64,000 bases of DNA. Origin: Asaia bogorensis NBRC 16594 (GTDB taxonomy: Bacteria; Pseudomonadota; Alphaproteobacteria; Acetobacterales; Acetobacteraceae). Shown here piece by piece: positions 36,380 through 52,696 of the stretch (the stretch's first letter is position 1; every line of letters starts with the position of its first letter). The notes beneath the pieces are model-generated. The model saw only the letters and a list, made by a program, of their open reading frames with translations, made no database searches and was not told the origin of the DNA. A program made the translations under genes and the position numbers. The stretch covers positions 310,001-374,000 of the forward strand of contig NZ_AP014690.1 of the NCBI RefSeq assembly GCF_001547995.1, given 5' to 3'.

Positions 36380-36718
36380 GTTTCATGCGACCCCCATTCA
36401 TGCCGATGCCCGCGCAGGGGAATGATGTGTGCTCCTGTCAATAGTTAACGATTAATGGTTCCCAAAAATTTCGGTTTTTCTCGAAATAGAGCTGAGCCAC
36501 CCGAGAGCCCGATGATCTGTGATCGTTGTAAGTAACTGACAGAAAATGATTTCTGATTGGTAACGGTGCTTCAGGCAGTGTGACTTTGTTGCACAGCATT
36601 GCTCGAACTATGTAATATAAATGTAACGCGCCTTGCGGGCGTTAACAATCTTCCGTTACGGCTTGGGAACGTTGCGATGCGTAATATCGCGAATTAACCC
36701 ATTTTGACGGAACGTTCC
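36380..36718. other. Leader/promoter region of the TonB receptor gene
   Basis: The gap after the terminator is AT-rich and holds no gene I can support. Short dyads such as GTAACG...CGTTAC are scattered through 36555-36660, and the last 100 bases hold the likely promoter and leader. No Fur-like site comparable to those at 2311 and 63663 is visible. Confidence 0.35.
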
Positions 36719-39700
36719 ATGACGCTGCTCCCAAGAGAGACGCACGATTCGGGTCGCCATAACCCGATCGTCGCCCCGTCAACCCGACGCAAGCGACCGC
36801 TTGCCGCCGGTCTCATGAGTGCCACAGCCTGTGTCGCTCTGTTGCATTTCGTCAGTGACGCACGGGCACAGAGTGTTTCGGCCTCTGAAACATCGACAAT
36901 CCCTGTCAATGCTGCCAAGGCTCCTGCCAAGAGCAAGGTGAAGGTCAATGCCCAGAGCCGCTCGACGCGTGCCAGGGCTGTTTCCGCACCGGTTGGGGAC
37001 GCTCCTGCGACCTCGCGCCCCGAAACCATCATGGTGACGGGCTCGCTGTTCCGCGATCCGAACACGACCAGTGCGTCACCGATTACGCACATCACCATGA
37101 AGGACATGCAGCAGCGTGGCATCAAGACCGTGACCGATGCGCTGCAGCTCCTGTCTTCCAACGGTGCAGGTAATCTGACCAATGCCTGGTCGGCGGGTGG
37201 TGGCTTTGCCGCCGGTGCATCGGCTCCGTCGCTCCGCGGTCTCAGCACGGATTCGACGCTGGTCCTCATGGATGGGCAGCGCCTGTCGTACTATCCGCTG
37301 GCCGATGACGGCGAGCGCAACTTTGTCGACACCAACTGGATGCCGCAATCCATCATGCAGGGCGTGGACGTGCTGCAGGATGGCGGCTCGGCAACCTATG
37401 GTGCTGACGCCGTTGCCGGTGTGGTCAACATGATCACCCGTAAGGAAATCAAGGGTTTCGAGGGTAACGCCGAAGGTGGCCTGACGCAGCGTGGCGATGC
37501 GGGGCATCAGCGCCTCTACGCCACCTGGGGTCATGGCGACCTGCACAAGGACGGCTATAACTTCTACATCAACTCGGAATATCAGCAGGACGATCCGCTT
37601 TATTACCGTCAGCTCAATTCACCGTATAACAATGGTGACCTGACCGGGATCGGTGGCAGCAACGGTAACGATAACATCGTCTCGGGTGGCTCGATCACCA
37701 ATTTCGCGCCGTCGACCGTAGCGCTCGTACGTCCTGTAACGGGAACCGGCACCAATACGGCACCCTGGTCGCTTCTGAACCAGCAGGCGGGTTGCCGTGG
37801 CCTCGATGGCCTGGTTACAGGAACTGTTGGCGGAAGCACCGGCATAAGCCAGGCCTGCTCGTGGAATACACAGAAATACGCCCAGGTCGCGCCTGACCTG
37901 CGTCGCGTCAGTGCCACGGCTCACTTCACGGCTAATGTCACCGAGCGTTCACAGCTGACAGCCATGTTCACCTGGTCGCAGGCGCGTTCCATCATCACCG
38001 GTACGCCCTACTCGACCTATGGCGGCACGTCCTACAGCCAGGCAAAGCTGGCGACAGCGCAGAACACCTATCTGCCTGTCTATCTGGCTGATGGCTCGCT
38101 CAACCCGAACAACCCTTACGCCGCACAGGGTGAGCAGGCTCAGGTCAATTACCGTTTCGGCGATCTGATTCCGACCACCATGGACACGAGCCAGAACTTC
38201 CGTGGCTCGGTGCGCTACAATGGCTGGCATCCGTCGCGCTGGGGTTCAGACTGGAATTACGACGTCAACTTCGTTGGCATGAACACGCTGCTGAACCAGA
38301 CGATCACGGGCGTGCCGACCATCTCCGGCATCCAGAACGCCATTACCAGCGGCAGCTACAATTTCGTGGATCCGTCGCAGAACTCGCAGTCGGTGCTGAA
38401 CGCCATCGCGCCGCGTAATGTCATCAATGCGCGCACACAGGAATATTCAGGCGAAGCCACGCTCAGCAAGGGTCTGTTCCACCTGCCGGGTGGTATGGCC
38501 AAGCTCGCCATCGGCGGCAACATTCGTTACGAAGCCCTGAACGATCCGAACGCCAACCCGCTCGATACGGCCAATCCGGCCAACCAGTACACCAGCTATA
38601 TCAATCCTGTGAATGCTCAGGGCAGCCGCTGGGTCGAGTCAGGTTTTTTCCAGGCTGAGGCGCCGATTGTTAAGATGCTGAGTGCCGATGCCTCGGGCCG
38701 TTACGATCATTATTCAGAAGGCTTCAGCCATTTCTCGCCGAAATTCGGCGTGCAGTTCAAGCCGACCGAAAAGCTGACGATCCGCGGCACGTTCCAGAAG
38801 GGCTTCCGCGTTCCCAGCTTTGCTGAAACGGGCGGGTCGAATGTAGGCTACACCACCTACACGCCCAACAATGCCAACTTCATCAGCCAGCATCTGAACG
38901 CCAACGGTACGCCCAACAACTACGCGCAGAATTACTATATCGGCTCGAACACGGCCGGTAACCCAAACCTGCGTCCTGAAACCTCGACCAATTTCTCGGG
39001 TGGGCCGATCTTCCGCCCGACCCGCTGGCTGACCCTGATGGCGGATTACTATTATATCCGCAAGAACCACTACATCGCGCCTAACCCGGTTGGCACCACC
39101 AACGTGGCCAATGCCTATCTCGCAGGCGAAGCCCTGCCGACCGGTGTAACGGTTACCCCGGATATCGCCGATCCGCAGAACCCCAGCGGTCAGCTGCGCC
39201 CCGGCATCATCAATCTGGGCTACGTCAACACGAACAAGCTCGTGACTGACGGTTTCGACCTGTCCTTCGAAGCCAACACGCAGCTTCCCGGCGTGTTTCA
39301 TGAAGTCCACTGGTACAGCAAGGGCACAGCAACCTTCGTTCGTCGCATGAACCTGACCAATCCGGATGGCTCGGTCTATCGCTATGCCGGAACGCTTGGG
39401 CCGTATGGTGCGGTTTCGGCCTCGGGAACGCCCCGCTGGCGCGCCAACTGGTCCAACACGCTGTCATGGCGCAAGCTGGCTGTCACGCCGACAGTCTATT
39501 ACACCAGCGGTTATCGCACGACGGCTGAAGATCAGACCGGATCTGGTACGGCAGGCAATTGCGCAGACGCGCTCCAGTCGAGCAGCTTCGTTCCGCTGGG
39601 CCAGTGCAAGGTCAAGGGCTTCTGGGATGTCGACCTGACGGTGAACTATCAGTTCAACCGCCGTTGGAGCGCCTATGCCAACGTCTACAATCTGCTTGGC

Positions 39701-39814
39701 TTCAAATCGCCTTACGATTTCGGCACCTATGGCGGTTATCTCTACAACTCTTCCTGGACCCAGAACGGTGTCGTTCTTCGCTCCTTCCAGTTCGGCGTGA
39801 AGGTCGTTCTCTGA
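36719..39814 (+). CDS. TonB-dependent outer-membrane receptor (1031 aa)
   Basis: After a long twin-Arg-free signal region (SATACVALLHFVSDARA, cleavage near residue 50) comes a plug domain: ETIMVTGSLFRDPN near 102, LRGLSTDSTLVLMDGQRL near 173, then DVLQDGGSATYGADAVAGVVNMITRK near 216. A 22-strand-type barrel follows, ending FQFGVKVVL. It resembles the large Xanthomonas/Caulobacter-type receptors for carbohydrates or other nutrients more than siderophore receptors; the substrate is unknown. ATG 36719 is preferred over TTG 36704. A strong terminator follows, so it is monocistronic. It sits between the polyol module and the 40-50 kb cluster and could serve either. Confidence 0.9.
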   Translation: MTLLPRETHDSGRHNPIVAPSTRRKRPLAAGLMSATACVALLHFVSDARAQSVSASETSTIPVNAAKAPAKSKVKVNAQSRSTRARAVSAPVGDAPATSRPETIMVTGSLFRDPNTTSASPITHITMKDMQQRGIKTVTDALQLLSSNGAGNLTNAWSAGGGFAAGASAPSLRGLSTDSTLVLMDGQRLSYYPLADDGERNFVDTNWMPQSIMQGVDVLQDGGSATYGADAVAGVVNMITRKEIKGFEGNAEGGLTQRGDAGHQRLYATWGHGDLHKDGYNFYINSEYQQDDPLYYRQLNSPYNNGDLTGIGGSNGNDNIVSGGSITNFAPSTVALVRPVTGTGTNTAPWSLLNQQAGCRGLDGLVTGTVGGSTGISQACSWNTQKYAQVAPDLRRVSATAHFTANVTERSQLTAMFTWSQARSIITGTPYSTYGGTSYSQAKLATAQNTYLPVYLADGSLNPNNPYAAQGEQAQVNYRFGDLIPTTMDTSQNFRGSVRYNGWHPSRWGSDWNYDVNFVGMNTLLNQTITGVPTISGIQNAITSGSYNFVDPSQNSQSVLNAIAPRNVINARTQEYSGEATLSKGLFHLPGGMAKLAIGGNIRYEALNDPNANPLDTANPANQYTSYINPVNAQGSRWVESGFFQAEAPIVKMLSADASGRYDHYSEGFSHFSPKFGVQFKPTEKLTIRGTFQKGFRVPSFAETGGSNVGYTTYTPNNANFISQHLNANGTPNNYAQNYYIGSNTAGNPNLRPETSTNFSGGPIFRPTRWLTLMADYYYIRKNHYIAPNPVGTTNVANAYLAGEALPTGVTVTPDIADPQNPSGQLRPGIINLGYVNTNKLVTDGFDLSFEANTQLPGVFHEVHWYSKGTATFVRRMNLTNPDGSVYRYAGTLGPYGAVSASGTPRWRANWSNTLSWRKLAVTPTVYYTSGYRTTAEDQTGSGTAGNCADALQSSSFVPLGQCKVKGFWDVDLTVNYQFNRRWSAYANVYNLLGFKSPYDFGTYGGYLYNSSWTQNGVVLRSFQFGVKVVL

Positions 39815-40025: not shown

Positions 40026-40760
40026 TCAGTTCTTGTAATCCGGTTGCTCACGATCCAGCTTGCGGCGCAGGGCCTTCCAGATCATCTGCCCCTGATCGGG
40101 GTCTGTCTCGAATTGCTGGCGCGCGCGCAGCACCTCGGCCTCGCTCGGGCAATGCAGCCTGGCCCCGGTCGATTGCGCGGCCAGCTGCACGCGGCAGGCC
40201 TGTTCCAGATAATACATGCGGTAAAAGGCCTGAGCCACGGTGCTTCCAATGGTCAGCAGGCCGTGATTTTGCAGAATCAGCCCCATATGGTCGCCCAGAT
40301 CGCGCACCAGACGCTCGCGCTCGCTCAGATTGTCGTCCGCCGCAATACCCTCATAGGGGTGAAAGCCGATGCGCCCGTAGAACTCCATATTGATCTGGTT
40401 CAGGGGCAGGATTCCCTCTTCCTGCGCGGCAATGGCCATGCCCGCTAGAGTATGGCTGTGCATCACGCAGTCTGCCTCGGGATGGGCCCGGTGCACGGCG
40501 GAATGGATCACGAACCCAGCCGGATTGACCGGCCAGCTCGTCTCCTGCTGGGGGTGCCCTTCTGAATCCACCACTACGAGCGAGCTCGCCGTGATCTCCT
40601 CGAAAAGCAGCCCATAGGGATTGACCAGAAAGCGATGCCCCTCTCCGGGCAAACGCACGGAAAGATGGGTGTAGACCATGTCGGTCAGGCCGAACTGCGC
40701 GTAGAGCCGATAGGCGGCGGCCAGTTCCTCGCGCAATTCCTTTTCGGTCTGGGCGGTCAT
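40026..40760 (-). CDS. Class II aldolase/adducin-family protein
   Basis: The 244-residue protein has the class II (FucA/RhaD/adducin) fold: YTHLSVRLPG near residue 30, FLVNPYGLLFEEITASSLV near 44-62, zinc ligands in MHSHTLAG (His101, His103) and QNHGLLT (His166). The Glu found at the FucA catalytic position (Glu73) is not obvious here (a QQET follows at 71-74), so aldol cleavage is likely but not certain; decarboxylase or dehydratase variants exist. GGGAGTG precedes the ATG, which overlaps the oxygenase stop by four bases. It is the last gene of the minus-strand cluster with the oxygenase, isomerase and receptor. Confidence 0.88.
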   Translation of the reverse strand: MTAQTEKELREELAAAYRLYAQFGLTDMVYTHLSVRLPGEGHRFLVNPYGLLFEEITASSLVVVDSEGHPQQETSWPVNPAGFVIHSAVHRAHPEADCVMHSHTLAGMAIAAQEEGILPLNQINMEFYGRIGFHPYEGIAADDNLSERERLVRDLGDHMGLILQNHGLLTIGSTVAQAFYRMYYLEQACRVQLAAQSTGARLHCPSEAEVLRARQQFETDPDQGQMIWKALRRKLDREQPDYKN

Positions 40761-41791
40761 GCGGTCACTCCCGTCTTGCTGAAATGCCCAAATGTATTGG
40801 TGCGTCGTGTTCCCTCAGGCAAGGCAATTTCACCCCGCTCGCGTTTGGCAATGAGATAGGAATAGGTCTGCATGGCCTGCGCCCACATGTGATCCCCGAT
40901 TTTCACGGCCTCATAGGCGGTGTCGCCCTTCTCGAAAGCGGGGAGGGGGCGTATTTCGTGATGATAATCGCAGGCATAGAAAAGCGGGAAGGAATAGCGT
41001 TCCTCCTTCACGCTGCGCACGCGATGGGCGGTGGCGACAAAAGCCCCCGCCGTCATCATTTCGAGCATATCGCCGATATTGACCACAAAACTCCCCGGAA
41101 TGGGCGGCGCATCGATCCACTCACCCTTGCCGTTCAGCACTTCCAGACCCGGCTGGTCAGCCAGCAGGATGGTGAAGCACTCATAATCCGTATGCGCGCC
41201 AATGCCCGGTGCGTCATGCGCCTCACCATCGAAGGGATAATGGATCATGCGCAGCTTCGACGGGGGAAATTGCGCGACATCGTCGAAACTATGCTCATCG
41301 AGCCCCAGCGCGAGGGCGAAACCACGAAACAACACGCGCCCCAACTCGAAAACGGCCTTGTAATAGGCGCTCGCCCGCTCGCGGAACAGCGGGATGTCGG
41401 GCCAGTCATTGGGGCCGAGAAGCGGCGTTCCGGCCTGGACCAGAGGGTGATCGGCAGGAACCTCGAAGCCAATATCGAAGGCTTCCTTATGGTCGGGGCG
41501 GGATTTGTTGTAGATTTCCTCCCCTTCCGGAACGAAGCCCTTATGAGAGGCGGAACTACCAATATAGCGCTTCATTTTCTCCTCCAGAGGCTGGGAGAAG
41601 AAATCCTTCGCCGCCTGGCGCAGATCGGCGATGAGTTCGGGCGCAACGCGATGGCCGGCAATATAGAAAAACCCGATCCTGCTGGCTGCTTCGTGCAGCG
41701 CCGCCGCCACTTTCTGACGATCGGTCTTGTCTGCCGAATACAGCCCGGCAATATTGATTACCGGAATGGACGTGAAGGTCTCTTCTGTCAT
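40757..41791 (-). CDS. Fe(II)/2-oxoglutarate oxygenase, isopenicillin-N-synthase family
   Basis: The 344-residue enzyme has the N-terminal non-haem dioxygenase segment (IPVINIAGLYS, FFYIAGHRV) and the double-stranded beta-helix with Fe ligands His200 and Asp202 (GAHTDYECF) and His256 (TAHRV). Arg265-x-Ser267 binds the 2-oxoglutarate carboxylate, so it is a true 2-oxoglutarate oxygenase rather than an oxidase of the IPNS type. The substrate is unknown. ATG 41791 has GGAG nine bases upstream and follows the isomerase stop by one base. Coupling to an aldolase suggests hydroxylation followed by carbon-carbon cleavage, which is inference. Confidence 0.9.
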   Translation of the reverse strand: MTEETFTSIPVINIAGLYSADKTDRQKVAAALHEAASRIGFFYIAGHRVAPELIADLRQAAKDFFSQPLEEKMKRYIGSSASHKGFVPEGEEIYNKSRPDHKEAFDIGFEVPADHPLVQAGTPLLGPNDWPDIPLFRERASAYYKAVFELGRVLFRGFALALGLDEHSFDDVAQFPPSKLRMIHYPFDGEAHDAPGIGAHTDYECFTILLADQPGLEVLNGKGEWIDAPPIPGSFVVNIGDMLEMMTAGAFVATAHRVRSVKEERYSFPLFYACDYHHEIRPLPAFEKGDTAYEAVKIGDHMWAQAMQTYSYLIAKRERGEIALPEGTRRTNTFGHFSKTGVTA

Positions 41792-41792
41792 G

Positions 41793-42647
41793 TCAGGACT
41801 CTCCTGCTGAAGCGGGGAAGCACCCCGCAAAGGATCTGACCTGATCCTGCCTGAGCCAGTCATTCATGGCATGGCGGTCGGCAAGGGGCAGATCGGTGAA
41901 GGGCAAGGTATGGGTGTAGCCATCGGGGCCACATTCCGGTGTCAGCGTTGTGACATCGTAGCCGCGTGCGCGCTGCGACACCCAGATTCGGCGCCAGAAA
42001 TCGCGGTGAAAATCGAGTGCCTTCTGGTTTTCAGGTGCCGCCGGATGCGAAACCTGCGGTCCCTGATCATAGCCCACGCGTGCCTGAACGTGATGCACAC
42101 GCGCGATGAATCCACTGAAATCATCGCAGGGGTCATCGAGCAGTCTTTCGCAGCCCACCACCCAATGGCTGATATCGGCGGTAAAAAGCGCTTCGGGTAT
42201 TTGCACGATAACATCGAGCGTGATCCAGGGCGTGGCGCAGAGCCGGGCGCGATGGGTCTCGAAGCTGAGCGTCAGCCCGTGCTTCTGTCCCAGCCCCATC
42301 GCACGACCGATGAATTCGGCCTGAAGCGCAGCATTCCAGCGATCATTGCCGCCCAGCACGTTCACGAAGCGGGGGGAGAGGAGCACGGCGCGCCCGAGGG
42401 CCTCATCCAGATCGGCTAGATGGTCGTCCAGCGTCGCGCACTGGCGGGGGATGACCCCGCCGCCGGTCAGGGCAATGGCGATATAGGGGCAATCGGTGTC
42501 GCGCAGGGCCGTGCGGCAGGTAGCGAGGTTTTCCGGCTCCGGGATACGCGCCTCGATCCCGTCATAACCCCGACGATGGGCATCGGCGATTGCCTCAACC
42601 CAGGGACGCGTATCGCCCCAGAGTGTTAGGAAGCTGTCGAGGCGCAT
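41793..42647 (-). CDS. TIM-barrel sugar isomerase/epimerase-like protein
   Basis: The 284-residue protein belongs to the xylose-isomerase-like TIM-barrel group (AP endonuclease 2 family). Metal-binding-type positions are seen in YDGIEARI near residue 36, LSFETHRAR near 140, ADISHWV near 168 and ARVHHVQARVG near 196 with a distal TPECGP. These enzymes isomerise or epimerise small sugars, hydroxy-acids or inososes. ATG 42647 has GGGAGA upstream; the earlier ATG 42668 has none. It follows the TonB receptor gene within 35 bases and is followed immediately by the oxygenase gene. Confidence 0.82.
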   Translation of the reverse strand: MRLDSFLTLWGDTRPWVEAIADAHRRGYDGIEARIPEPENLATCRTALRDTDCPYIAIALTGGGVIPRQCATLDDHLADLDEALGRAVLLSPRFVNVLGGNDRWNAALQAEFIGRAMGLGQKHGLTLSFETHRARLCATPWITLDVIVQIPEALFTADISHWVVGCERLLDDPCDDFSGFIARVHHVQARVGYDQGPQVSHPAAPENQKALDFHRDFWRRIWVSQRARGYDVTTLTPECGPDGYTHTLPFTDLPLADRHAMNDWLRQDQVRSFAGCFPASAGES

Positions 42648-42680
42648 CGGCGTGTCGTCTCCCGTCATGCTTGTATCGGA

Positions 42681-45014
42681 TCAGAAATTATAGCGCAGAT
42701 CGCAGCCGATCCAGCGTGGCGTCTGAAGGAACTGCACGCGGGAATTATCCGAGCCTGTGAAGGAATAGGTGTTGCCGTGCTTGTTGAGCATGTTGTCGAC
42801 ATACACGGCGGCCGTCCATTTGCCGGTTTTCGGCCCCACCTCCATCCGCATCCCGAAAGAGCTGATCTTGTCGGTCACGCCATTGGGGTCACCCAAGGCC
42901 ACCAGCATATTGTCTTTCCAGGTATAGCTGGTCTGGAGCGTCATGCGATAGGCGCGGGGCAGGTCGATGCCATAACGTGCCACGGCATTCCAGGAGAAGC
43001 GCGGGGCGAAAGGCAGCACCGAATGAGCGGTGACGGAGGAAAGCAGCGGCAGACCGCCGATATCATTCACCGCATTGGTCGCCTGTGCATCGAGATAGGC
43101 AAAGGAGCCGCGCAGATCGAGATTGGGGATCAGATCATGCAATGTGCTCGACAATTCGCCGCCGCGGGTACGGGCACGGGGGATAGGCCCAAGGCTGAGT
43201 GAGGTGATGTTCATGGGCATTTCAGCCACGAACAGCGTCTGGCGGTTGTGATATTCGTAATCGAACAGCGCGCCTTCGATCTGCACATGGTTGTGCAGCA
43301 GGCTTGTCTTGGCGCCGACTTCATAAGCGATCATGTTTTCAGGACGCACATAATCGAGTGCCTGAGGGGCAGAAACAGGGGCCGCAAAATAGGCGCCCGC
43401 CTTGTAGCCGTTGGAAATGGTGGCATAGACCTGTGTGCCGGGCATGATAGTGTAACGCAGCCCCACGCGCCCTGTCAGGCGGGCATAGGAATGGGTGGTG
43501 TCGAGGCGTGAGAGATAGGCACCCTTGGTCGTGAGTGCGCCAGCATCGTCGATCGTCCCGCCATTGAAGCCACGATCATCCCAGGAGAAACGGCCCGAGG
43601 CGATGAAATCGAGATTACGCAGCACATTGGTGACCGTGTTGATATAGAGCCCGGTCGAGACATTCTGCTGCACGAAACGGTCTGTCAGATTGCCGTTGGG
43701 CACGCCGAGCAGAAAGGAACGGTAGCTCGTATAGGCCCCGTTGATCTTGTCCCAGGATTCATAGACGCCCACCGTCAGGTGAAAACGTTTCGCCAGATCC
43801 ATCCTGAGATGCATGTCATGGGACTGGGCGAGGGACGTGTCATTCCAGTGATAATCACCGACGTTGATTGATTCGCCATCGTAATTATCATAATCGCTGC
43901 GACGGAAGGCGTCGAAGGCGGTGGTCGAGACGAACTGCCCCCAGTTGAAATCATGGGTGTAATTGATCGAGACGCCGCCGCCATTTTCGTTACGGCCGAC
44001 GCGGTTCGTACCCACATTGACCGCGTTATAGGACGCATTTGGCCCCACACCCACCGTTCCGGTCGGAAAGCCGTTGACCGCATCGCCATCCGTATCCTGC
44101 GGCGACATCGAAATGCCCTTGTCGCGCGTGTAATGGATGTTCAGCAAAAGGCTGGAACGGTCATCGATCAGAAAGCGCGTGAGATTGCGCAAGCCCAGCT
44201 GATCCTGCGAGCCATAGCGTTTGTTCGTGTGGATATCGCGCTGCCAGCCATCGCCATTGATATAGGAAAAGGCGGTGCGGTTCTGGACACGGTCGGAGAT
44301 CGGCACATTGACCGCTGCACTCGCCGTGTTGGTGCCATAGCTGCTATAGCCCCAATCCACATAGCCGCCGAATTTGCCATCGGGCTTGACCGTCTCGACC
44401 GCAATGTTCCCACCTGTCGAACTGCGCCCGTAATCGAAACCCTGCGGCCCCTTCTCGACGGCGACGGACTGGGTGTCGAACATCTGCCCCGTATAGAACA
44501 CGGGATAGGGGGCAAAGACGCCGTCCTGATAGATGCCGATCCCGCCCATGTTATTGCCGGTATAATCGTCGAGCCCGATCCCGCGGATCGAGAAGACAGG
44601 CGTGCTGCCCGAAGTGGCATTCACCGCGGTAAGGCCCGGCGTATAGGCTGCAATATCCTTGGGGCTGGTGATGTGCAGTTCCTGCAACTCGCGGCCACTC
44701 AGCACATTGACCGTGGCCGCCGTTGTCAGGAAGCGCTGAGCGCGTGATCCCGTGACCTGAATGGCCTCCGGGTCGGAATGGGGTGCTGCATGGCGCCAGG
44801 CATGGGTGCTGCTGCGCGGCGTATGGGTGGCGCGGGATGGGGAAGCGCCATGAAGGGGATGATTGGGTGTCGTGGTGTACGGGCTTGTTGCTGCATGGGC
44901 CACACCGCCCATACAGGACCCCTCCAATCCCGAGCCAACCAGAACGATCCCGGCAGAGAGCGAAAGCGCCGTGCTGGTGAGGCGGCGAAATCCTTTGGGC
45001 AGGCGCGTCATCAT
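42681..45014 (-). CDS. TonB-dependent outer-membrane receptor (777 aa)
   Basis: The receptor has a signal peptide (TSTALSLSAGIVLVGSG region, cleavage near AHA at residue 41). A TonB box-like EAIQVTGSRAQ follows near 83, then a plug with SPKDIAAYTPGLTAVNATSGSTPVFSIRGIGLDDY, KGPQGFDYGRSSTGGNIAVET, and a barrel ending IGCDLRYNF. It resembles FpvA/FhuE-less, short-plug receptors of the type annotated for carbohydrates, thiamin or xenobiotics. Encoded first in a tight run with the isomerase, oxygenase and aldolase, it probably brings their substrate through the outer membrane, with the ABC importer acting next. GGGAG lies upstream of ATG 45014. Confidence 0.88.
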   Translation of the reverse strand: MMTRLPKGFRRLTSTALSLSAGIVLVGSGLEGSCMGGVAHAATSPYTTTPNHPLHGASPSRATHTPRSSTHAWRHAAPHSDPEAIQVTGSRAQRFLTTAATVNVLSGRELQELHITSPKDIAAYTPGLTAVNATSGSTPVFSIRGIGLDDYTGNNMGGIGIYQDGVFAPYPVFYTGQMFDTQSVAVEKGPQGFDYGRSSTGGNIAVETVKPDGKFGGYVDWGYSSYGTNTASAAVNVPISDRVQNRTAFSYINGDGWQRDIHTNKRYGSQDQLGLRNLTRFLIDDRSSLLLNIHYTRDKGISMSPQDTDGDAVNGFPTGTVGVGPNASYNAVNVGTNRVGRNENGGGVSINYTHDFNWGQFVSTTAFDAFRRSDYDNYDGESINVGDYHWNDTSLAQSHDMHLRMDLAKRFHLTVGVYESWDKINGAYTSYRSFLLGVPNGNLTDRFVQQNVSTGLYINTVTNVLRNLDFIASGRFSWDDRGFNGGTIDDAGALTTKGAYLSRLDTTHSYARLTGRVGLRYTIMPGTQVYATISNGYKAGAYFAAPVSAPQALDYVRPENMIAYEVGAKTSLLHNHVQIEGALFDYEYHNRQTLFVAEMPMNITSLSLGPIPRARTRGGELSSTLHDLIPNLDLRGSFAYLDAQATNAVNDIGGLPLLSSVTAHSVLPFAPRFSWNAVARYGIDLPRAYRMTLQTSYTWKDNMLVALGDPNGVTDKISSFGMRMEVGPKTGKWTAAVYVDNMLNKHGNTYSFTGSDNSRVQFLQTPRWIGCDLRYNF

Positions 45015-45177
45015 GAAAAGGACTCCCGTCAGTGGCTTCCCAGTCATTGAAGAGGCGAAACGACATCCTGTTCGATTGAAAAAAACCAAACCTCACTTTG
45101 TCAGATCGTTACCCATATCGCGTCATTCATGGAATTATGGCAAATCTTCCGGGATCACGCGTTTTGAGACGCCTTTG

Positions 45178-45939
45178 TCACGTGTGGTGAATCATCTGGT
45201 CCAGAAACTGGCGCGCACGGGCCGTATCGGGTGCTGTGAAAAACTTCTCCGGGGGGGAAGCCTCCAGCACGACGCCCTTGTCCATGAACACCACGCGGTC
45301 GGCAATATGGCGCGCAAACCCCATTTCATGCGTGACGCAGATTGTGGTGATGCGTCGCTCAGCCAGGGCGTTGATAATGCTGATCACACCCTTGATGGCT
45401 TCCGGGTCCAGAGCCGCAGTAGGTTCGTCGAAGAGAATGATATCGGGCGCCATGCACAGGGCGCGGGCAATCGCGACACGCTGCTGCTGCCCGCCTGAAA
45501 GCTGGATCGGGTATTTATCGGCCTGTTCGCCGATACCCACCTGCTCCAGATAGCCTCGGGCGAGCGATTCCGTTGCATCGCGATGGGCCTTGCGGACAAG
45601 ACGCGGGGCGAGTGTGCAGTTTTCCAGCACGGTGAGGTGCGGAAAGAGATTATAATTTTGGAACACCATCCCCACTGCCCCGCGCAGCAGGGGCAGGCTT
45701 GTCTTGTTGTCGATCACCTCACCATCGATCATGAGCACCCCACTATCATGGGGCTCGATACGGTTCAGTGTGCGGATAAAGGTCGATTTCCCTGATCCTG
45801 ATGGCCCCAGAACGACAATTTTCTCGCCATGATCGATATCGAGGCTCACCCGGTCCAGCGCGAGAAACTCGCCATAGAATTTGCTGAGCTTGCGCAGGCT
45901 GAGGGCGCAATCGGGGTTGGGGGGCAGATTATGCAACAT
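45178..45939 (-). CDS. Polar amino-acid-type ABC importer ATPase
   Basis: The 253-residue ATPase is of the GlnQ/HisP type: Walker [14 protein letters not shown] near residue 44, [15 protein letters not shown] near 90, signature [15 protein letters not shown] near 147, Walker [14 protein letters not shown] and THEMGFAR near 205, all characteristic of polar amino-acid importers. It overlaps the fused binding-protein/permease gene by 11 bases, so the two form one importer. The substrate is probably a charged or polar amino compound. Confidence 0.93.
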
Positions 45940-47536
45940 GGTTTGATGTCTCCACAGCTGCGGTGCCAGCCGCTGCCCTGTCTGCAGGGTTTTCCGTGGT
46001 CATCCCGGGTCTGGCGGCGCTCCCGGCGCGGCTTGCCCAGACAAAGCGTGTTTCAATGCGCTTTTGCAGGTGCAGGAAGGCAAATACCATCACAAGGTAA
46101 TAGACCAGCGCCGCAGCGTAATATTCGGTAAACTCGAAGCTTCGCGCCACCTGAACCTGCGTGATGAACAGCAGCTCCTGCAGGGAGATGACCGAAGCCA
46201 GCGAGGTTGTCTTGAGCAGTGAAATGAATTCATTGATGGTAGGCGGCAGTGCCACGCGCAGGGCCTGGGGAAAGATCACATGGCGGTAGATCTGTGCCTG
46301 ACTCATGCCCAGAGCCTGCCCCCCTGCCAGCTGTCCGGGGTCGATGGCGCTCAGCGCCGCCCGATTGATCTCGACCTGATAGGCCGATTCATTGATCGAC
46401 AGACAGATCCATGTGGCCAGAAAAGGCGAAAACCAGCTCTCGCGAAATACCGGAAAGAATTGCGGCAGCGCATTCCAGATGAAGAGAAGCTGCAGCAATG
46501 TCGGCGCACCACGAAAAACGGCGACGTAGGCCCGCAGGAAAGGATGCCAGAGTGAGCGCGGGGCATTGAGTTTCAGGGCAATGGGAATGGAAATAACGAT
46601 GGCCGCTGCATGAGAGGCGAGCGCAATCGCCAGCGTCATGACGGCGCCCTTGAGGAACGCCATCGAAAAAAGGGCTGAGAAAAACGTGGTTGTGTTGAAG
46701 CGCGGTCTTTCACTGTGCACACCGAGCGCCGCTCGAGCAGCCGGGCCGACATTCCATTTTTTCTCAAGGGCTGCGATCTTGCCCTGCTGCTTCAGCGTGG
46801 CGATGGCCCCATCCAGCAGCGCCTTGTCCTGCCCGGTGCGGCGCAGATAGATCGCGAACTCCGAATAGCCCGGTAGGGAAGGGGTGAAGATGACATGGAG
46901 CTTGCTGCCCAGCTGGGCCTGTCGATAGAAAAGCTCGACATCCTGACTCAGGAAATTCTGTGACCGTCCAACCAGAACCTGCTGCACCACCTGATCTTCG
47001 CTCGGATATTGCTGAAGCATGATCGGGGCCTTGCCGCGTGCAGCCAGGCCCTGGTTGATTTCCTCGATACGGGCGGCATAGCTCGTGCCTGATTCAACAG
47101 CGAGGCTCTGCCCCGCGAGGGCGTCGAAACTACTTACCGAAGCGATCTGGCTGGGGGCCACCACAACCGGCGAGGTTTCGAGATAGGCAACCGCATCAAA
47201 CAGCCGCTCGCGCGACGCCTGTTTGAGCACCCCGCTCATGACCAGACTGCACCGCCCCGCCCCGAGGCTCGGGAAAAGCCCTGTGAAATCCATCGTCTCG
47301 AACTGAACGGGGACATGCCAATAGGCGCCCAGCTCACGCGCCAGCGCGATATCGAACCCGTCCAGCGCCGAGAGATCTGCCCCGTTGACGAATGTCATGG
47401 GGGGCAGGGTCGGATTGGTGCAGATACGCAGCGTTCCGTTTTCGATGAAGGCCGGGCGTTCCTGGGCATAGCCTGAAGCTGGCGAGAGGAACACGACCAG
47501 CAGCGCGAGGCAGGCGATGAGGCGGCGCATCAGCAT
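45929..47536 (-). CDS. Fused ABC substrate-binding protein and permease
   Basis: One 535-residue chain contains a signal sequence (LIACLALLVVFLSPASGYAQ), then a periplasmic binding-protein domain (residues 30-270: GTLRICTNPTLPPMTFVNG, SLGAGRCSLVMSGV, a duplicated-lobe layout). A HisM/GlnP-type permease domain with five helices follows at about 285-500 (LKGAVMTLAIALASHAAAIVISIP, RGAPTLLQLLFIWNALP, GQALGMSQAQIYRHVIFPQALRVALPPTINEFISLLKTTSL with the EAA loop). Fusion tethers the binding protein to the membrane. The domain order and family point to uptake of polar amino acids or related nitrogen compounds. It starts within the last codons of the LysR gene. Confidence 0.92.
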   Translation of the reverse strand: MLMRRLIACLALLVVFLSPASGYAQERPAFIENGTLRICTNPTLPPMTFVNGADLSALDGFDIALARELGAYWHVPVQFETMDFTGLFPSLGAGRCSLVMSGVLKQASRERLFDAVAYLETSPVVVAPSQIASVSSFDALAGQSLAVESGTSYAARIEEINQGLAARGKAPIMLQQYPSEDQVVQQVLVGRSQNFLSQDVELFYRQAQLGSKLHVIFTPSLPGYSEFAIYLRRTGQDKALLDGAIATLKQQGKIAALEKKWNVGPAARAALGVHSERPRFNTTTFFSALFSMAFLKGAVMTLAIALASHAAAIVISIPIALKLNAPRSLWHPFLRAYVAVFRGAPTLLQLLFIWNALPQFFPVFRESWFSPFLATWICLSINESAYQVEINRAALSAIDPGQLAGGQALGMSQAQIYRHVIFPQALRVALPPTINEFISLLKTTSLASVISLQELLFITQVQVARSFEFTEYYAAALVYYLVMVFAFLHLQKRIETRFVWASRAGSAARPGMTTENPADRAAAGTAAVETSNHVA

Positions 47537-48513
47537 GTCTCTTCCAGAATGGCGCGGAAGGTTTCGGCCATGAGCCCGTTTTCCGGGGTGGGATGTATCA
47601 GGAAGTAGAAATGATTCACCAGATGCAGGTCATTGAACACGATATGGCGCAGCCTGTCCTGCTGGACCATCTGCGTCACGAACAGCTCGGGCAGAAAACC
47701 GACATACATGCCCGACAGGATCAGCAGGGCGCGTGAGTCGATATTATCGGCGCGCGCCGCAAAATTCATGGAGGGGCGCAGTTCATCCCATCGCGGGGAA
47801 GATGCGGCATCGCTGACACTGATCATGCGTGCCTCGGCGAGGGCGGCGATATCGATCGTGTCTTCCGGGCGGTCAAAAAGCGGATGGCGGGCGCCGCAGT
47901 AAAGATTGGACCGTTCGCTGAAGAGGGCGGTTGCTTCCATTTCGGGCTGCTGGTGCGGATAGAGCGTAATCCCGGCCGTTGCCGTCCCGTTACGCACGGC
48001 AAATTCCACATCGCGTGTCGAGGCCGAGCGCACATCCATCTCAACCGCAGGATAGCGGCTGGTAAAGATCTGGATGGCCCGCAACAGGGCGGTTTCGCCA
48101 TGAAACTGGATGTTGTCGGGCAGATAGAGGCAGAACCGTCCCGAGAGCGTTCCGCTGACATCATTGATGCGCTGCTGGAACAGATCGATATCGGTAAAAA
48201 GGCGCGTCGTGGCATCGAGTACCCCCTGGCCCTCATTCGTCAGGGCAAAACCCGCGCGCCCACGGTGGCACAACACCATGCTCAGCCGGTTTTCAAGGGC
48301 GGCAATGTCAATGCTGATCGAGGATTTGCTCTTGCCCAGCGCCAGTTCTGCCGCAGCGAAACCGCCATGCTGGGCCACGCAGGCAAAGACACGCAGAAGG
48401 CGCAGATCGACCTCGGCGATACGCCCCTGAAACCCGCTGGCGCGAGGTGGGCGTCGTGGCGTGGCGTTGGGGCGGATACGTGACAAAGGCGGGAATCCTG
48501 CTTCAGCAAACAC
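47530..48513 (-). CDS. LysR-type transcriptional regulator
   Basis: A 327-residue LysR protein with an N-terminal helix-turn-helix (DLRLLRVFACVAQHGGFAAAELALGKSKSSISIDIAALENRL) and a periplasmic-binding-like sensor domain from about residue 120. The GTG at 48513 gives 35 residues before the usual start, and a TTG start around residue 10 is possible. The stop overlaps the fused transporter gene by seven bases, so regulator and importer are co-transcribed. A LysR-type dyad lies 142 bases upstream and equally far from the divergent hydrolase gene, the expected geometry for a regulator of both. Confidence 0.9.
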   Translation of the reverse strand: MFAEAGFPPLSRIRPNATPRRPPRASGFQGRIAEVDLRLLRVFACVAQHGGFAAAELALGKSKSSISIDIAALENRLSMVLCHRGRAGFALTNEGQGVLDATTRLFTDIDLFQQRINDVSGTLSGRFCLYLPDNIQFHGETALLRAIQIFTSRYPAVEMDVRSASTRDVEFAVRNGTATAGITLYPHQQPEMEATALFSERSNLYCGARHPLFDRPEDTIDIAALAEARMISVSDAASSPRWDELRPSMNFAARADNIDSRALLILSGMYVGFLPELFVTQMVQQDRLRHIVFNDLHLVNHFYFLIHPTPENGLMAETFRAILEETC

Positions 48514-48654
48514 GTGATGATATCTCCCCTTGCGACACGATCAACCGTTCATCTGCCAGCCTTCTGTCGGGCTTTGGCAAAAGCCAGGTCGGTTACAGGG
48601 AGTATGCCGGGTGGAGCGCAGGCGATAATTTATGAAACGCCAAACCAAACTCCA

Positions 48655-48671
48655 TCTCATTGTAATTGAGA
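48655..48671. promoter_or_regulatory. Textbook LysR-type operator in the divergent gap
   Basis: TCTCATTGTAATTGAGA is a perfect TCTCA-N7-TGAGA dyad containing the T-N11-A core (T48657, A48669). It lies at the centre of the 299-base gap 48514-48812, 142 bases from each gene start. The rest of the gap holds AT-rich promoter sequence on both sides and no gene. Confidence 0.65.
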
Positions 48672-48812
48672 AATGATCCAGTGGCTTCTAGCCTCGCTCA
48701 TACCTGACGGGCGTTGATGGCCTGCCAGATGCCTCATCGGGCCTTGCGTCAGGCAGGGTCGCAGCCGGCAGAACCTGCCCCGCCGGGTCTGCCTTCAACA
48801 GGAGCGCCGTGC

Positions 48813-49679
48813 ATGACTGCCAATCGCTGGTTCATTGATAGCGAAACCGGAACATTGTCGGATGTGCTGCTCTGCCCGCCTGATTTCTACACCTGGAACC
48901 CGAGCAACGATATCGCCATACGCACCCTTGCCACGGGCGCACGTCCGGACCCGGCAAAGCTGAAAGCGCAATTTGCCGGGTTGGTACACGTGCTGGAAGA
49001 GGCTGGCGTTCATTGCCATTTCCTCACCCCGCGGGAGGGCCAGCCCTATCAGGTCTATACACGCGATTCGTCGCAAACGACCCCATGGGGCACGGTTGTC
49101 ACGCGCCTGATGCGCCCCGAGCGCCAGCCCGAGCAGGAGGGGATCGAGGCTTTTTACGCCGAAGACGAGATCACCGGATACTGCACCGAGGGTTATGTCG
49201 AGGGGGGTGATATCCATATCATCCGTCCCGGCCTGGTTGTGGTGGGTGTCAGTGGCGGCCGTACAACCGTCGAGGGGGCGCAGGCCTTTCTCAAGCCTTT
49301 CGAAGCGGCAGGCTGGATATGCCGCATGGTCCATTTCCCCGAGCATTTCCTGCATCTGGATGTGATTTTCACGATGGTGACCGAAGGCCTCGCCATTGGC
49401 GTCACGGATGTGCTGGAGGATGAAGACCTTGCCTGGTTCGAGGCGCAGGGCATCCGTATTCTTCCCGTGACCTACAAGGAGGCCATGCGTGATATGGCGT
49501 GCAATGTGCTGGCGCTGGGTGAGGGGCGTGTGGTGAGCCCCCGACATTCGCGCCGCGTCAACGCCATGTTGCGCGATCATGGTCTGACCGTGCTGGAGCC
49601 TGAACTTGACGAGTTCTCGCAAGGCGGTGGCAGCATACACTGCATGACGATGCCGCTCAGACGTGCCAGTCTGGCCTGA
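48813..49679 (+). CDS. Arginine-deiminase/DDAH-superfamily hydrolase
   Basis: The 288-residue protein is of the guanidine-modifying superfamily: Arg84-Asp85 (TRDS), E130-GGD, catalytic His181 with Asp183 (HLDVIF) and the nucleophile Cys277 (GGGSIHCMTMPLRR). All catalytic groups needed to hydrolyse a guanidino or amidino carbon are present. The length fits dimethylargininase better than arginine deiminase (about 410). The true substrate may be a modified arginine or another guanidino compound, giving a ureido product or an amine. GGAG precedes ATG 48813. It faces the LysR-importer operon across a shared operator and is followed by a hydroxyacid dehydrogenase gene. Confidence 0.85.
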   Translation: MTANRWFIDSETGTLSDVLLCPPDFYTWNPSNDIAIRTLATGARPDPAKLKAQFAGLVHVLEEAGVHCHFLTPREGQPYQVYTRDSSQTTPWGTVVTRLMRPERQPEQEGIEAFYAEDEITGYCTEGYVEGGDIHIIRPGLVVVGVSGGRTTVEGAQAFLKPFEAAGWICRMVHFPEHFLHLDVIFTMVTEGLAIGVTDVLEDEDLAWFEAQGIRILPVTYKEAMRDMACNVLALGEGRVVSPRHSRRVNAMLRDHGLTVLEPELDEFSQGGGSIHCMTMPLRRASLA

Positions 49680-49723
49680 CGACACGGTATCATGTTTTTT
49701 GATGCAGGCAGGAGAGCGTATTC

Positions 49724-50674
49724 ATGGCACCACGTCTGATCATCAGTGCTGATGGGCCGGAAGCCTTTGCAGGCTGGCGCGATTCCTTTGCCACCCATGC
49801 GCCCGATATCGAGATCCTGTCCTGGTTCGATCCTGCCACGCCCCGTGATGCGGCGCAGTATGCGCTGGTCTGGGAGGCCGATGACGATGATTTGCGCGCC
49901 ATGGGGCATCTGCACGGTATCCTGTGCACGGGCGCAGGCGTCAATCACCTCGTCAGAAGTCCGGCCTTTCCCCGTCATGTGCCGCTCGTGCGCATGGGGG
50001 GTGGCGATACGGCGCGGCTGATGGCCGATTATGTTTTATGGGCGTGCATGACCCTCTTGCGTGATGCCCGGACATGGGCCTTGCAGCAGGCGCGGCATGA
50101 ATGGGCGCGTAATCTGGTTTCGCGTACCAGCGCCAATACCCGCGTCGCTGTGCTCGGTTATGGGCAGATCGGGGCGGTGGTGGCGCAAAGCCTAGCGCGT
50201 GCCGGATTTGAAGTCTGCGCCTGGCGTCGCTCGCGAGGGGAAACCGCAGACGGGCCTGTCAGTCTTTTCAGCGGGTCGCAAGGGCTTGAGCATGTTCTCG
50301 GTCAGGCCGATCTGCTGGTCAATCTCCTGCCCAGCACCCCCCAGACACGACACCTCCTGAACGAGGCAACCCTAACGCAATTGCCGCGCGGTGCAGGGCT
50401 TATCAATGTCGGTCGTGGCGATCATCTGGTAGAGGCCGATCTGCTGGCCCTGCTGGATGCGGGGCATCTCTGCGGTGCCGTGCTGGACGTGGTGGCCGAA
50501 GAGCCCCTGTCTACGCATTCGCCGCTATGGGATCACCCGGCCATCACGCTGACCCCCCACGTGGCCTCCGAAGCCTCACGGGAGGAACAGGTCCGTTATG
50601 TGGCGGAGGTTATTCGTGAGATGGAACGCGGGGGAAATCCGTCGCTTCTCTATGACCACCAGCGTGGGTACTGA
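49724..50674 (+). CDS. D-2-hydroxyacid dehydrogenase, GhrA-like
   Basis: The 316-residue protein has the D-isomer 2-hydroxyacid dehydrogenase fold: a catalytic-domain start, Rossmann motif VAVLGYGQIGAVVAQSLARAGF near residue 142, LPSTPQTRHLLNEATL near 204, NVGRGDHLVE near 226 with the catalytic Arg, VLDVVAEEPL near 253, and LTPHVASE with the catalytic His near 276. It resembles glyoxylate/hydroxypyruvate reductase A. It probably reduces a 2-oxoacid made by the pathway of the neighbouring genes. GGAGA is upstream; the gap from the hydrolase stop is 44 bases, so one operon is likely. Confidence 0.88.
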   Translation: MAPRLIISADGPEAFAGWRDSFATHAPDIEILSWFDPATPRDAAQYALVWEADDDDLRAMGHLHGILCTGAGVNHLVRSPAFPRHVPLVRMGGGDTARLMADYVLWACMTLLRDARTWALQQARHEWARNLVSRTSANTRVAVLGYGQIGAVVAQSLARAGFEVCAWRRSRGETADGPVSLFSGSQGLEHVLGQADLLVNLLPSTPQTRHLLNEATLTQLPRGAGLINVGRGDHLVEADLLALLDAGHLCGAVLDVVAEEPLSTHSPLWDHPAITLTPHVASEASREEQVRYVAEVIREMERGGNPSLLYDHQRGY

Positions 50675-51643: not shown

Positions 51644-52534
51644 CTAGCCCCGGCGTTCGGCAATGGCGGCAGCAAGGGTTGAAACGAGCACCAGCGAGGC
51701 TGCGTTGGAGCGAAATCCCTGAAAATCGGCTTCATGCACTTCCAGCCACAGGCCTGACTGCGGGATGACCGGGCTGGCTGCGCTGTCCGTCATGGCGATA
51801 ACCGGCACATGGCGCGCCTCGAGCGCTTGAAACAGCTCGATCGTGCGGGGTGCGTAATCCGTATAGCTCAGCACCAGAGCTGCATCCTCTGGTCCGGCAT
51901 GGGCAAAGCTTTCCTCTTCCATACCGGTTTCGAGCCCAATGATCTGATGGCGAATATCGAGTTTTGCCAGAAGATAGGACAGATAGCGTATGACTGGCAT
52001 GGAACGGCGCAGCCCCAGGAGATAGAGGCAGTTGGCCTGCGCCATGGTGGTGACAGCAGCCTCAAGCCGTTCAGGCAGCAGATGGGCCTGCAAGGCACGC
52101 AGGGAGTCATGCGCTGCCTCGTAAAAACCATTGAAAATAACTGAGGCTTCGAGCGGCTCGCCATCGACGCGATGCAGCGCATTGACGCGCTCGCGATAGG
52201 TCACGTTGCGCACGCGCAAACGGTCACGAAAAACCGCCTGCATTTCCGAAAAGCCGCCAAAACCCAGCGTGCGGGCAAAACGCACGACGGTCGAGGGCTG
52301 CACGCCGGCCTGTCTTGCCAGGGAGCTGACCGTTCCGAGCGCCACTTCATCGGGATCCTCGGTCACGAAATCAGCAAGCTGGACCAGCCTCTTGGGAAGC
52401 TGCGCATAGCATTGGCGCAGGCGATGGTGGAACGCGTCAAAATCGGACTGGGTCGGCACGGCGTCTTCAGCAATATCGGTCAAGGCAAGGTGATCCGCAA
52501 AAGGGAATGGATATTCCATAGCAAAACCGGGCAT
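51644..52534 (-). CDS. iolR: RpiR/MurR-type regulator, probable iol repressor
   Basis: The protein (296 residues from ATG 52534, or 291 from 52519) has an RpiR-type helix-turn-helix (LGTVSSLARQAGVQPSTVVRFARTLGFGGFSEMQAVFR) and a C-terminal SIS sugar-phosphate sensor domain from about residue 120 (LYLLGLRRSMPVIRYLSYLL, DAALVLSYTDYAPRTIELFQALEARHVPVIAMTDS). RpiR-type IolR proteins control inositol operons in other alphaproteobacteria and enterobacteria. Being divergent from iolC with two matching dyads between them, it is most likely the iol regulator; the name follows context, not a measured function. Confidence 0.85.
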   Translation of the reverse strand: MPGFAMEYPFPFADHLALTDIAEDAVPTQSDFDAFHHRLRQCYAQLPKRLVQLADFVTEDPDEVALGTVSSLARQAGVQPSTVVRFARTLGFGGFSEMQAVFRDRLRVRNVTYRERVNALHRVDGEPLEASVIFNGFYEAAHDSLRALQAHLLPERLEAAVTTMAQANCLYLLGLRRSMPVIRYLSYLLAKLDIRHQIIGLETGMEEESFAHAGPEDAALVLSYTDYAPRTIELFQALEARHVPVIAMTDSAASPVIPQSGLWLEVHEADFQGFRSNAASLVLVSTLAAAIAERRG

Positions 52535-52615
52535 CCGGGCGAAGTGTCCCGGTCGCTCATGACGCCCTTGCCACGCAGTTAATCACATCAGCGTGCGAAG
52601 TTAAAGAAAATTAGG

Positions 52616-52659
52616 GAATGTACGTTCTATGACGTGACCAAGAACAGAATGTATGTTCT
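52616..52659. promoter_or_regulatory. Two spaced operator-like dyads before iolC
   Basis: GAATGTACGTTCT (52616-52628) and GAATGTATGTTCT (52647-52659) are near-identical, each a partial dyad (GAA..GTAC..TTC), with starts 31 bases apart, about three helical turns. They lie 38-81 bases before the iolC start, in the promoter shared with the regulator gene. They are the best candidates for IolR binding. Confidence 0.6.
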
Positions 52660-52696
52660 TATCATGCGCAACGTAACATGCTTGCAGGAGTCGGGG

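What the first reader, a model, noticed from the sequence alone, without database searches (positions are those of the whole stretch)
40026..50674. Candidate undescribed uptake and catabolism system for a polar nitrogenous compound
Nine genes share one architecture: TonB receptor, fused binding-protein/permease plus amino-acid-type ATPase, LysR regulator, TIM-barrel isomerase, IPNS-family 2-oxoglutarate oxygenase, class II aldolase and, divergently, a guanidine-superfamily hydrolase and a GhrA-like dehydrogenase. Catalytic residues are intact in the oxygenase (H200, D202, H256, R265, S267) and the hydrolase (R84, D85, E130, H181, C277). Amino-acid-type import plus a guanidine hydrolase suggests a guanidino or ureido compound that is oxidised, cleaved and reduced. 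I know no described pathway with this set.
Basis: partly seen in the sequence, partly recalled or inferred. Interest (0 to 1): 0.75.

Follow-up and report, generated by a model that had tools for sequence, protein, structure and literature searches.

The report
Guanidino-acid uptake and breakdown gene cluster
A vinegar-family bacterium carries a conserved set of genes that very probably imports an arginine-like nitrogen compound and breaks it down by an uncharacterised route, which would add a new way for bacteria to feed on such compounds.

Summary
Nine intact genes at 40026-50674 of an Asaia bogorensis chromosome form a unit that recurs in Acetobacteraceae: all nine lie in the fetched stretch (up to 10 kb each side of the hydrolase) in 20 of 55 related loci. 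The substrate is very probably a guanidino acid. The hydrolase is an ADI/DDAH-fold enzyme with both guanidino-binding aspartates, and a carbamoylase gene lies downstream of it in 24 of 55 loci. Best reading: an arginine-type acid goes to 4-guanidinobutyrate, 4-ureidobutyrate and GABA. The 'aldolase' lacks FucA's Glu73 and resembles TqaM/NovR, so it is probably a decarboxylating oxidase. Oxygenase and TIM-barrel genes were never found one without the other in the 55 loci; other TIM relatives sit with guanidine carboxylase genes and guanidine riboswitches. The substrate and the oxygenase/TIM step are inferred, not shown. Five literature searches aimed at the set found no description; their listings were partial.

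The parts
40026..40760 (-). class II aldolase/adducin-family protein (ald); probably a TqaM/NovR-like decarboxylating oxidase rather than an aldolase
   Evidence: PF00596 and NF005451 335 bits over 207; FucA Glu73 not conserved, His100/102/165 kept; TqaM 94.9 and NovR 89.1 bits
40757..41791 (-). 2-oxoglutarate/Fe(II) oxygenase (oxy); overlaps ald by 4 bp
   Evidence: PF14226 + PF03171; H200/D202/H256/R265/S267 invariant in 16 of 16
41793..42668 (-). TIM-barrel protein (tim), xylose-isomerase-like superfamily
   Evidence: model matches UlaE and ketose 3-epimerases; E131, D159, H187, E239 invariant in 28 of 28; start probably 42647-42668
42681..45089 (-). TonB-dependent outer-membrane receptor
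   Evidence: PF00593 + PF07715; in 28 of 30 Acetobacteraceae tim clusters and 0 of 22 others of the Asaia class
45178..45939 (-). amino-acid-type ABC ATPase
   Evidence: PF00005; best NCBIfam models GlnQ, TcyN, EhuA, ArtP, all under cut-off
45929..47536 (-). fused substrate-binding protein (family 3) and ABC permease
   Evidence: PF00497 + PF00528
47530..48513 (-). LysR-type regulator, divergent from the hydrolase
   Evidence: PF00126 + PF03466
48813..49679 (+). guanidino-acid hydrolase (hyd) of the arginine deiminase/DDAH superfamily
   Evidence: PF02274; AlphaFold2 model mean pLDDT 93.1, Foldseek hits DDAH, ArgZ/AgrE, ADI; TRD and H181/D183 invariant in 27 of 27
49724..50674 (+). GhrA-like 2-hydroxyacid dehydrogenase
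   Evidence: PF02826; NF012013 192.7 bits, under its cut-off of 403

Best explanation
The cluster takes up an arginine-type guanidino acid (arginine, D-arginine or a keto, hydroxy or N-substituted form) and degrades it through 4-guanidinobutyrate. Proposed order: (1) TonB receptor and fused binding-protein/permease import. (2) oxy and tim act together to open a C-N bond and deliver the 2-oxo acid, 5-guanidino-2-oxopentanoate (inferred). (3) GhrA reduces it to the 2-hydroxy acid where present (inferred). (4) ald removes one carbon by decarboxylative oxidation, giving 4-guanidinobutyrate (inferred from TqaM/NovR similarity). (5) hyd hydrolyses the guanidino group to 4-ureidobutyrate + NH3 (superfamily chemistry). 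(6) An M20 carbamoylase, encoded elsewhere in Asaia, releases GABA, CO2 and NH3. In Klebsiella and in many clusters of a family that looks like Pseudomonadaceae, steps 5-6 are done by guanidinobutyrase, and in some loci AruI can decarboxylate the 2-oxo acid. Shown by comparison: conservation of the unit, the guanidinobutyrase in place of hyd, adjacency of AruI, catalytic residues. Inferred: the substrate and steps 2-4.
For: hyd keeps both guanidino-binding aspartates, TRD and HLD; PMC9007349 passages say that members acting on guanidino groups have two conserved Asp and that the citrullinase-like CtlX has Asn there (FTRD to FPNN, HLD to HTN). Arg104 and Arg150 are invariant in 27 of 27 and match ADI's carboxylate-binding arginines (recalled). 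An M20 carbamoylase gene (TIGR01879 453 bits over 204) lies downstream on the same strand in 24 of 55 loci and overlaps hyd by 4 bp in 5 of the 6 sphingomonad/caulobacterial loci that have it. Of 52 tim loci with amino-acid-type ABC genes, 30 hold hyd, 12 a ureohydrolase (at least 55% identity to Klebsiella's), none both; 46 hold at least one of ald, AruI, hyd, ureohydrolase within 9 kb, against 0 of 15 other tim loci. Klebsiella ureohydrolase: guanidinobutyrase 495 bits, guanidinopropionase 291.6. L127 ureohydrolase: 661.7 bits to guanidinobutyrase 3NIO, 291 of 319 identical. AruI model NF005712 858-879 bits over 500 in the four tested, L085, L086, L127, L132; the other five AruI calls rest on at least 50% identity. 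A. bogorensis has no ureohydrolase, urease alpha subunit or urea/guanidine carboxylase over cut-off, so a urea-free route fits. A ghrA-ald pair with RidA and an FAD oxidoreductase in Paraburkholderia. TqaM: decarboxylative oxidation of a 2-hydroxy acid (PMC11880133 passages). 2OG oxygenase VioC oxidatively deaminates D-Arg to the 2-oxo acid (PMC9513391 passages).
Against: No biochemistry. Asaia's cluster lacks the M20 gene; the 60% homologue elsewhere also occurs in relatives without hyd (G001, G009). No GABA aminotransferase over cut-off in the genome, four weaker hits. Three of nine Asaia genomes have urease and one of these a ureohydrolase, and these three also have hyd, so hyd is not tied to their absence. 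In L126-L129 and L132 ald and AruI occur together, so they are not clean substitutes, and the AruI-guanidinobutyrase pair may be an older arginine operon beside which the cassette landed. Six of the 22 non-acetobacterial clusters show none of ald, AruI or ureohydrolase within 9 kb. Four loci (L018, L025, L046, L067) show ABC, ald and hyd but no oxy/tim nearby, and 13 of 55 show, of the genes probed, only hyd or hyd + ghrA. The AruI and most ureohydrolase cases come from related genomes of one family, so the counts are not independent. Four of six other ald contexts read show neither RidA nor a gene named GhrA. GhrA and binding-protein specificities are untested.
Confidence: 0.5

Rival explanations
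1. oxy and tim are an N-demethylase pair: oxy hydroxylates an N-methyl group on the guanidino nitrogen (methylated arginine or its 2-oxo acid) and tim releases formaldehyde; the other genes then degrade the demethylated compound.
For: MgdH, a 2OG dioxygenase, with a lyase MgdL does this to methylguanidine in a guanidine carboxylase operon (PMC12508155, part 1 of 7 and passages). tim relatives lie with CgdA/CgdB in L069, L108, L109, L111 (carboxylase model checked in L069 and L111), three of them with guanidine riboswitches. L110 has frmA/frmB beside tim. Four clusters show no oxy/tim nearby (the rest of those genomes was not searched).
Against: No frmA match near any of the 52 loci of the Asaia class (other formaldehyde genes not counted). 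The carboxylase-linked tim proteins lie outside the clade of the Asaia class. MgdL's model has a beta-barrel, tim is a TIM barrel; homology of oxy to MgdH was not tested.
Confidence: 0.2
2. oxy is an EFE-like hydroxylase that releases free guanidine from an arginine-type substrate; tim speeds the collapse.
For: The closest PDB chains are 9OVH, from a study of reconstructed ancestral EFEs, and PaIPNS 6JYV. tim-oxy lies inside a guanidine-riboswitch region in Paraburkholderia.
Against: A. bogorensis has no ureohydrolase, urease alpha subunit or urea/guanidine carboxylase over cut-off and no Rfam riboswitch hit in the window. PaIPNS makes no detectable P5C from arginine (PMC12329707 passages). 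hyd, guanidinobutyrase and AruI would have no role.
Confidence: 0.12
3. hyd is an ordinary arginine deiminase or DDAH beside a general basic amino-acid importer; the oxidative genes serve another compound.
For: Fold and motifs of ADI/DDAH; of the genes probed, hyd stands alone in 9 of 55 loci and with ghrA only in 4.
Against: The nine-gene unit in 20 of 55 loci and the guanidinobutyrase in place of hyd elsewhere. hyd scores far below the ADI, DDAH and ArgZ cut-offs that it matched, and ADI's Asn before FTRD is Tyr79 here (motif recalled).
Confidence: 0.12

Closest known systems
Arginine transaminase/oxidase route (AruH or arginine oxidase, AruI, KauB, GbuA) of Pseudomonas (pathway recalled)
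   Same: passes through 2-ketoarginine and 4-guanidinobutyrate to GABA; AruI and guanidinobutyrase genes lie beside many of the non-acetobacterial clusters
   Different: no transaminase, amino-acid oxidase, AruI or ureohydrolase in the Asaia cluster; a 2OG oxygenase, a TIM-barrel protein, a TqaM/NovR-like protein and an ADI-like hydrolase instead
MgdH/MgdL methylguanidine demethylation (PMC12508155)
   Same: 2OG oxygenase plus a partner protein, linked to guanidino compounds
   Different: TIM barrel instead of MgdL's beta-barrel; no guanidine carboxylase or riboswitch in the window; homology to MgdH untested
Arginine deiminase, DDAH, ArgZ/AgrE
   Same: fold and Cys/His/Glu/Asp catalytic set (ArgZ differs at one Asp, recalled)
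   Different: far below the curated cut-offs; linked to a carbamoylase in 24 of 55 loci; probably acts on an omega-guanidino acid
TqaL/TqaM (AIB biosynthesis, PMC11880133) and NovR
   Same: 2OG oxygenase (TqaL) in one pathway with a class II aldolase-like decarboxylating oxidase (TqaM)
   Different: catabolic setting with importer, guanidino hydrolase and TIM barrel
CtlX putative citrullinase (PMC9007349)
   Same: PF02274 superfamily, catabolic use
   Different: hyd has Asp in both guanidino-binding motifs, CtlX has Asn

Membership tests
Guanidino-group hydrolases (ADI/DDAH superfamily, PF02274) | Cys/His/Glu catalytic set and two guanidino-binding Asp | tested here: met
   D85, E130, H181, D183, C277 invariant in 27 of 27; fold match
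Arginine deiminase or DDAH proper | curated model score | tested here: not met
   arcA 63.6 bits vs 489.1; DDAH models 46.6-58.6 vs 300-450; ArgZ/arginine dihydrolase 54-56 vs 450 and 1025
Class II (FucA-type) aldolase | three His metal ligands | tested here: met
   H100, H102, H165 invariant in the alignment with E. coli FucA
Class II (FucA-type) aldolase | catalytic Glu73 of FucA (role recalled) | tested here: not met
   Pro, Ser or Val in the aligned column of 9 of 9 family members; a two-residue gap lies nearby, and the neighbouring columns hold no Glu either
Fe(II)/2OG oxygenase | HxD...H and RxS | tested here: met
   invariant in 16 of 16
EFE / arginine 5-hydroxylase | release of guanidine and P5C from arginine | not testable with these tools
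   PaIPNS, second-best PDB relative, gives no detectable P5C (PMC12329707 passages)
AruI-GbuA (4-guanidinobutyrate) route | guanidinobutyrase in or beside the cluster | tested here: not met
   no ureohydrolase in A. bogorensis nor, at 55% identity, within 9 kb in 30 of 30 Acetobacteraceae tim clusters; present in 12 of 22 clusters elsewhere
AruI-GbuA (4-guanidinobutyrate) route | 5-guanidino-2-oxopentanoate decarboxylase | tested here: not met
   none over cut-off in A. bogorensis; beside 9 of 22 clusters elsewhere
MgdH/MgdL system | guanidine carboxylase operon with guanidine riboswitch | tested here: not met
   no carboxylase over cut-off in the genome, no riboswitch in the window

The most novel reading that the evidence does not exclude
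tim plus an oxygenase is a hitherto unrecognised two-protein module for oxidative C-N cleavage of guanidino compounds. Its oxygenase half is exchangeable between a soluble 2OG enzyme and a membrane fatty-acid-desaturase-type enzyme, and it serves two pathways: operons with guanidine carboxylase genes and guanidine riboswitches, and (Asaia, Acetobacter, Klebsiella, probable Pseudomonadaceae) an amino-acid-importing route through 4-guanidinobutyrate that in Acetobacteraceae ends with a deiminase and a carbamoylase instead of guanidinobutyrase.
Probability: 0.4. Interest if true: 0.75.

Novelty: new variant of a known kind. Interest (0 to 1): 0.6.

Why it matters
It would give a directly testable function to several uncharacterised groups (a TIM-barrel family, a 2OG oxygenase group that includes a Klebsiella pneumoniae gene, a TqaM/NovR-like 'aldolase', and an ADI-like hydrolase clade). 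It would also add a urea-free exit from 4-guanidinobutyrate for bacteria without urease or ureohydrolase. The link of TIM/oxygenase pairs to guanidine riboswitch operons bears on the open question of where biological guanidine comes from.

Tried and rejected
Rejected readings. Sugar-phosphate aldolase: FucA Glu73 absent. Citrullinase: both Asp present. Free guanidine as main product in Asaia: no known route to use it in the genome. Guanidine riboswitch control in the window: none.

Led nowhere. Search for the MgdH gene by a published primer sequence in 46 genomes: 0 hits. Papers for PA4191/PA4192, for Asaia + guanidin and for TqaM + class II aldolase + NovR gave nothing useful. The GntB-like score of a desaturase-type protein is far below cut-off and was dropped. 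The ureohydrolase-like hits near hyd in L049 and L050 were not pursued. The first ORF caller mis-called high-GC loci and was replaced.

Rows dropped before counts. One search leaves out L001-L012, the short duplicate loci L074-L082 and L091-L104, and L113-L123. One search uses 25 of the 52 Asaia-class tim loci (26 chosen, L125 dropped) and 15 of 15 others. One search fetched 20 of the 59 places listed; with four that makes 24. Presence means a tblastn hit over a set identity and at least 40% or 45% of the query length. Family-scan tables show only the best 25 rows where more matched.
Full report
What is there. The window lies in a one-contig genome whose cluster is near-identical to that of Asaia bogorensis GD-01 (L058). 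The nine genes are ald, oxy, tim, a TonB receptor, an ABC ATPase, a fused substrate-binding protein/permease and a LysR regulator on the minus strand, and hyd and a GhrA-like dehydrogenase divergently on the plus strand. Eight have family-model hits; tim was placed by its relatives' Pfam hits and by fold. ald and oxy overlap by 4 bp, and the ATPase, permease and LysR ORFs overlap their neighbours.

It is a unit. A scan of one genome per species found 55 loci with hyd. In 20 of 55 all nine genes lie in the fetched stretch; in 29 of 55 both oxy and tim are present and in none only one of them; ald is in 33, the ABC genes in 34. The set is on a plasmid in Kozakia baliensis and, without oxy, tim and the TonB gene, on one in Komagataeibacter saccharivorans. 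In some Komagataeibacter tim-oxy-ald stand together downstream of hyd. Of the genes probed, 13 of the 55 loci hold only hyd, or hyd with ghrA.

The missing tenth gene. Downstream of hyd on the same strand, after ghrA in Acetobacter and without it in Komagataeibacter and sphingomonads, lies an M20 hydrolase of the hydantoinase/carbamoylase family, in 24 of 55 loci; it overlaps hyd by 4 bp in 5 of the 6 sphingomonad/caulobacterial loci that have it. Deiminase followed by carbamoylase is a two-step removal of a guanidino group without urea. Asaia has a 60% homologue elsewhere. A. bogorensis has no ureohydrolase, no urease alpha subunit and no urea/guanidine carboxylase over cut-off. Three other Asaia genomes, of nine in all, have urease, one of them a ureohydrolase too, and yet have hyd.

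The replacement that names the intermediate. In one bacterial family (f66, Pseudomonadaceae by its gene content, an inference) tim occurs in 57 of 298 genomes at E up to 1e-70. I read 24 of the 59 places, 19 of them of the Asaia class. Several show LysR | tim - oxy - SBP - permease/ATPase - ald - ureohydrolase, with AruI further on, or AruI directly after the permease/ATPase gene. The ureohydrolase of L127 aligns over 319 of 319 residues with solved guanidinobutyrase (661.7 bits; 291 identical). AruI matches the model '5-guanidino-2-oxopentanoate decarboxylase' with 858-879 bits over a cut-off of 500 in four of four tested. Over all 67 tim loci counted, 46 of 52 with amino-acid-type ABC genes hold at least one of ald, AruI, hyd or ureohydrolase within 9 kb, against 0 of 15 of the other class; hyd and ureohydrolase never occur together. 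Many loci are close relatives, so the Fisher value printed there overstates the case.

The 'aldolase'. ald keeps the three His ligands of E. coli FucA but not Glu73. After an uncharacterised class II aldolase/adducin-domain protein (3OCR), adducins and a structure labelled fuculose-1-phosphate aldolase (4XXF, 122 bits), its best PDB relatives are TqaM and NovR. TqaM oxidatively decarboxylates a 2-hydroxy acid (passages of PMC11880133); NovR chemistry is recalled. A ghrA-ald pair also occurs in Paraburkholderia beside RidA and an FAD oxidoreductase, and RidA beside ald in Cupriavidus. Four other ald contexts read show neither RidA nor a gene named GhrA. So GhrA plus ald plausibly turns a 2-oxo acid into the acid one carbon shorter, which for 2-ketoarginine is 4-guanidinobutyrate. 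Against this, five loci carry both ald and AruI.

oxy and tim. tim has the E131/D159/H187/E239 metal-site pattern of the epimerase superfamily (pattern recalled) and its model matches sugar 3-epimerases only loosely (TM about 0.6). The tim proteins of the Asaia class form one side of a branch with 100/100 support. The other 15 pair tim with a 2OG oxygenase (4) or a fatty-acid-desaturase-type protein (8 by BLAST, plus L110 and L111 by Pfam); the fifteenth, L109, is a 3.6-kb contig. In 4 of 15 tim lies with CgdA/CgdB, and in 3 of the 7 loci scanned (L069, L108, L111) guanidine-I or -II riboswitches are present. Both classes therefore point to guanidino substrates. For the Asaia class the neighbouring AruI suggests that the pair delivers 2-ketoarginine; a 2OG oxygenase that oxidatively deaminates D-arginine is known (VioC, passages of PMC9513391). 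N-demethylation, as by MgdH/MgdL (PMC12508155, part 1 of 7 and passages), is the main rival.

Rhizobial relatives. hyd homologues at 45% lie in operons with a binding protein, permeases, an amidase, a class III aminotransferase and a beta-keto-acid-cleavage-type enzyme, again fitting guanidino acid to ureido acid to amino acid to keto acid.

Literature. Ten searches of the open PMC library were run. Five aimed at the gene set or pathway and five at single proteins. None showed a description of this set, but three listings were cut (15 of 319, 15 of 22 and 12 of 197 papers shown), and subscription papers and preprints were not searchable. Papers seen only as listings are not used as evidence.

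Verdict. The cluster is real, conserved and very probably for a guanidino acid (about 0.85). A route through 4-guanidinobutyrate is the best reading (about 0.5). The oxygenase/TIM step and the imported compound are open.

Noticed in passing
window 51644-54622: RpiR-type regulator and a 662-aa fusion of an IolC-like kinase with a DUF2090-like C-terminal part (domain names recalled), near the cluster in Asaia and Swaminathania; PMC9007349 passages suggest DUF2090 is the most common aldolase of that step of myo-inositol catabolism.
   Followed up: no
window 36704-39814: A large TonB-receptor-like ORF (1036 aa, recognised by eye) just outside the cluster; its end is also at the edge of loci L014 and L015.
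   Followed up: no
L112 (Kozakia baliensis plasmid pKB16680_2): A second guanidino-type cluster: TonB receptor, amino-acid ABC genes, ADI-like protein (29% to hyd), two M20 hydrolases, ald (68%) and two polysaccharide-deacetylase-family proteins; no oxy or tim in the 14 kb seen.
   Followed up: partly
L111:3291-17722: One stretch with an ABC importer, creatininase-family protein, type III glutamine synthetase, desaturase-type protein, tim, CgdA/CgdB, carboxylase and an AtzF-like protein, with a guanidine-II riboswitch.
   Followed up: partly
L110:7166-11095: frmA and frmB (formaldehyde oxidation) directly before a tim relative and a desaturase-type protein, hinting at formaldehyde release in that class.
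   Followed up: no
L070:10199-11008: A short stretch like the M20 carbamoylase (47%) at the end of the Sinorhizobium operon that holds the hyd homologue; it may be an incomplete gene.
   Followed up: no
L054, L055 (Inquilinus limosus and a record labelled Mycobacterium sp. KBS0706): hyd homologue followed by an aminotransferase (NF005732 over cut-off in L054) and what looks like a polyamine-type ABC importer; the Mycobacterium record has the same gene order as Inquilinus, so its label may be wrong.
   Followed up: no
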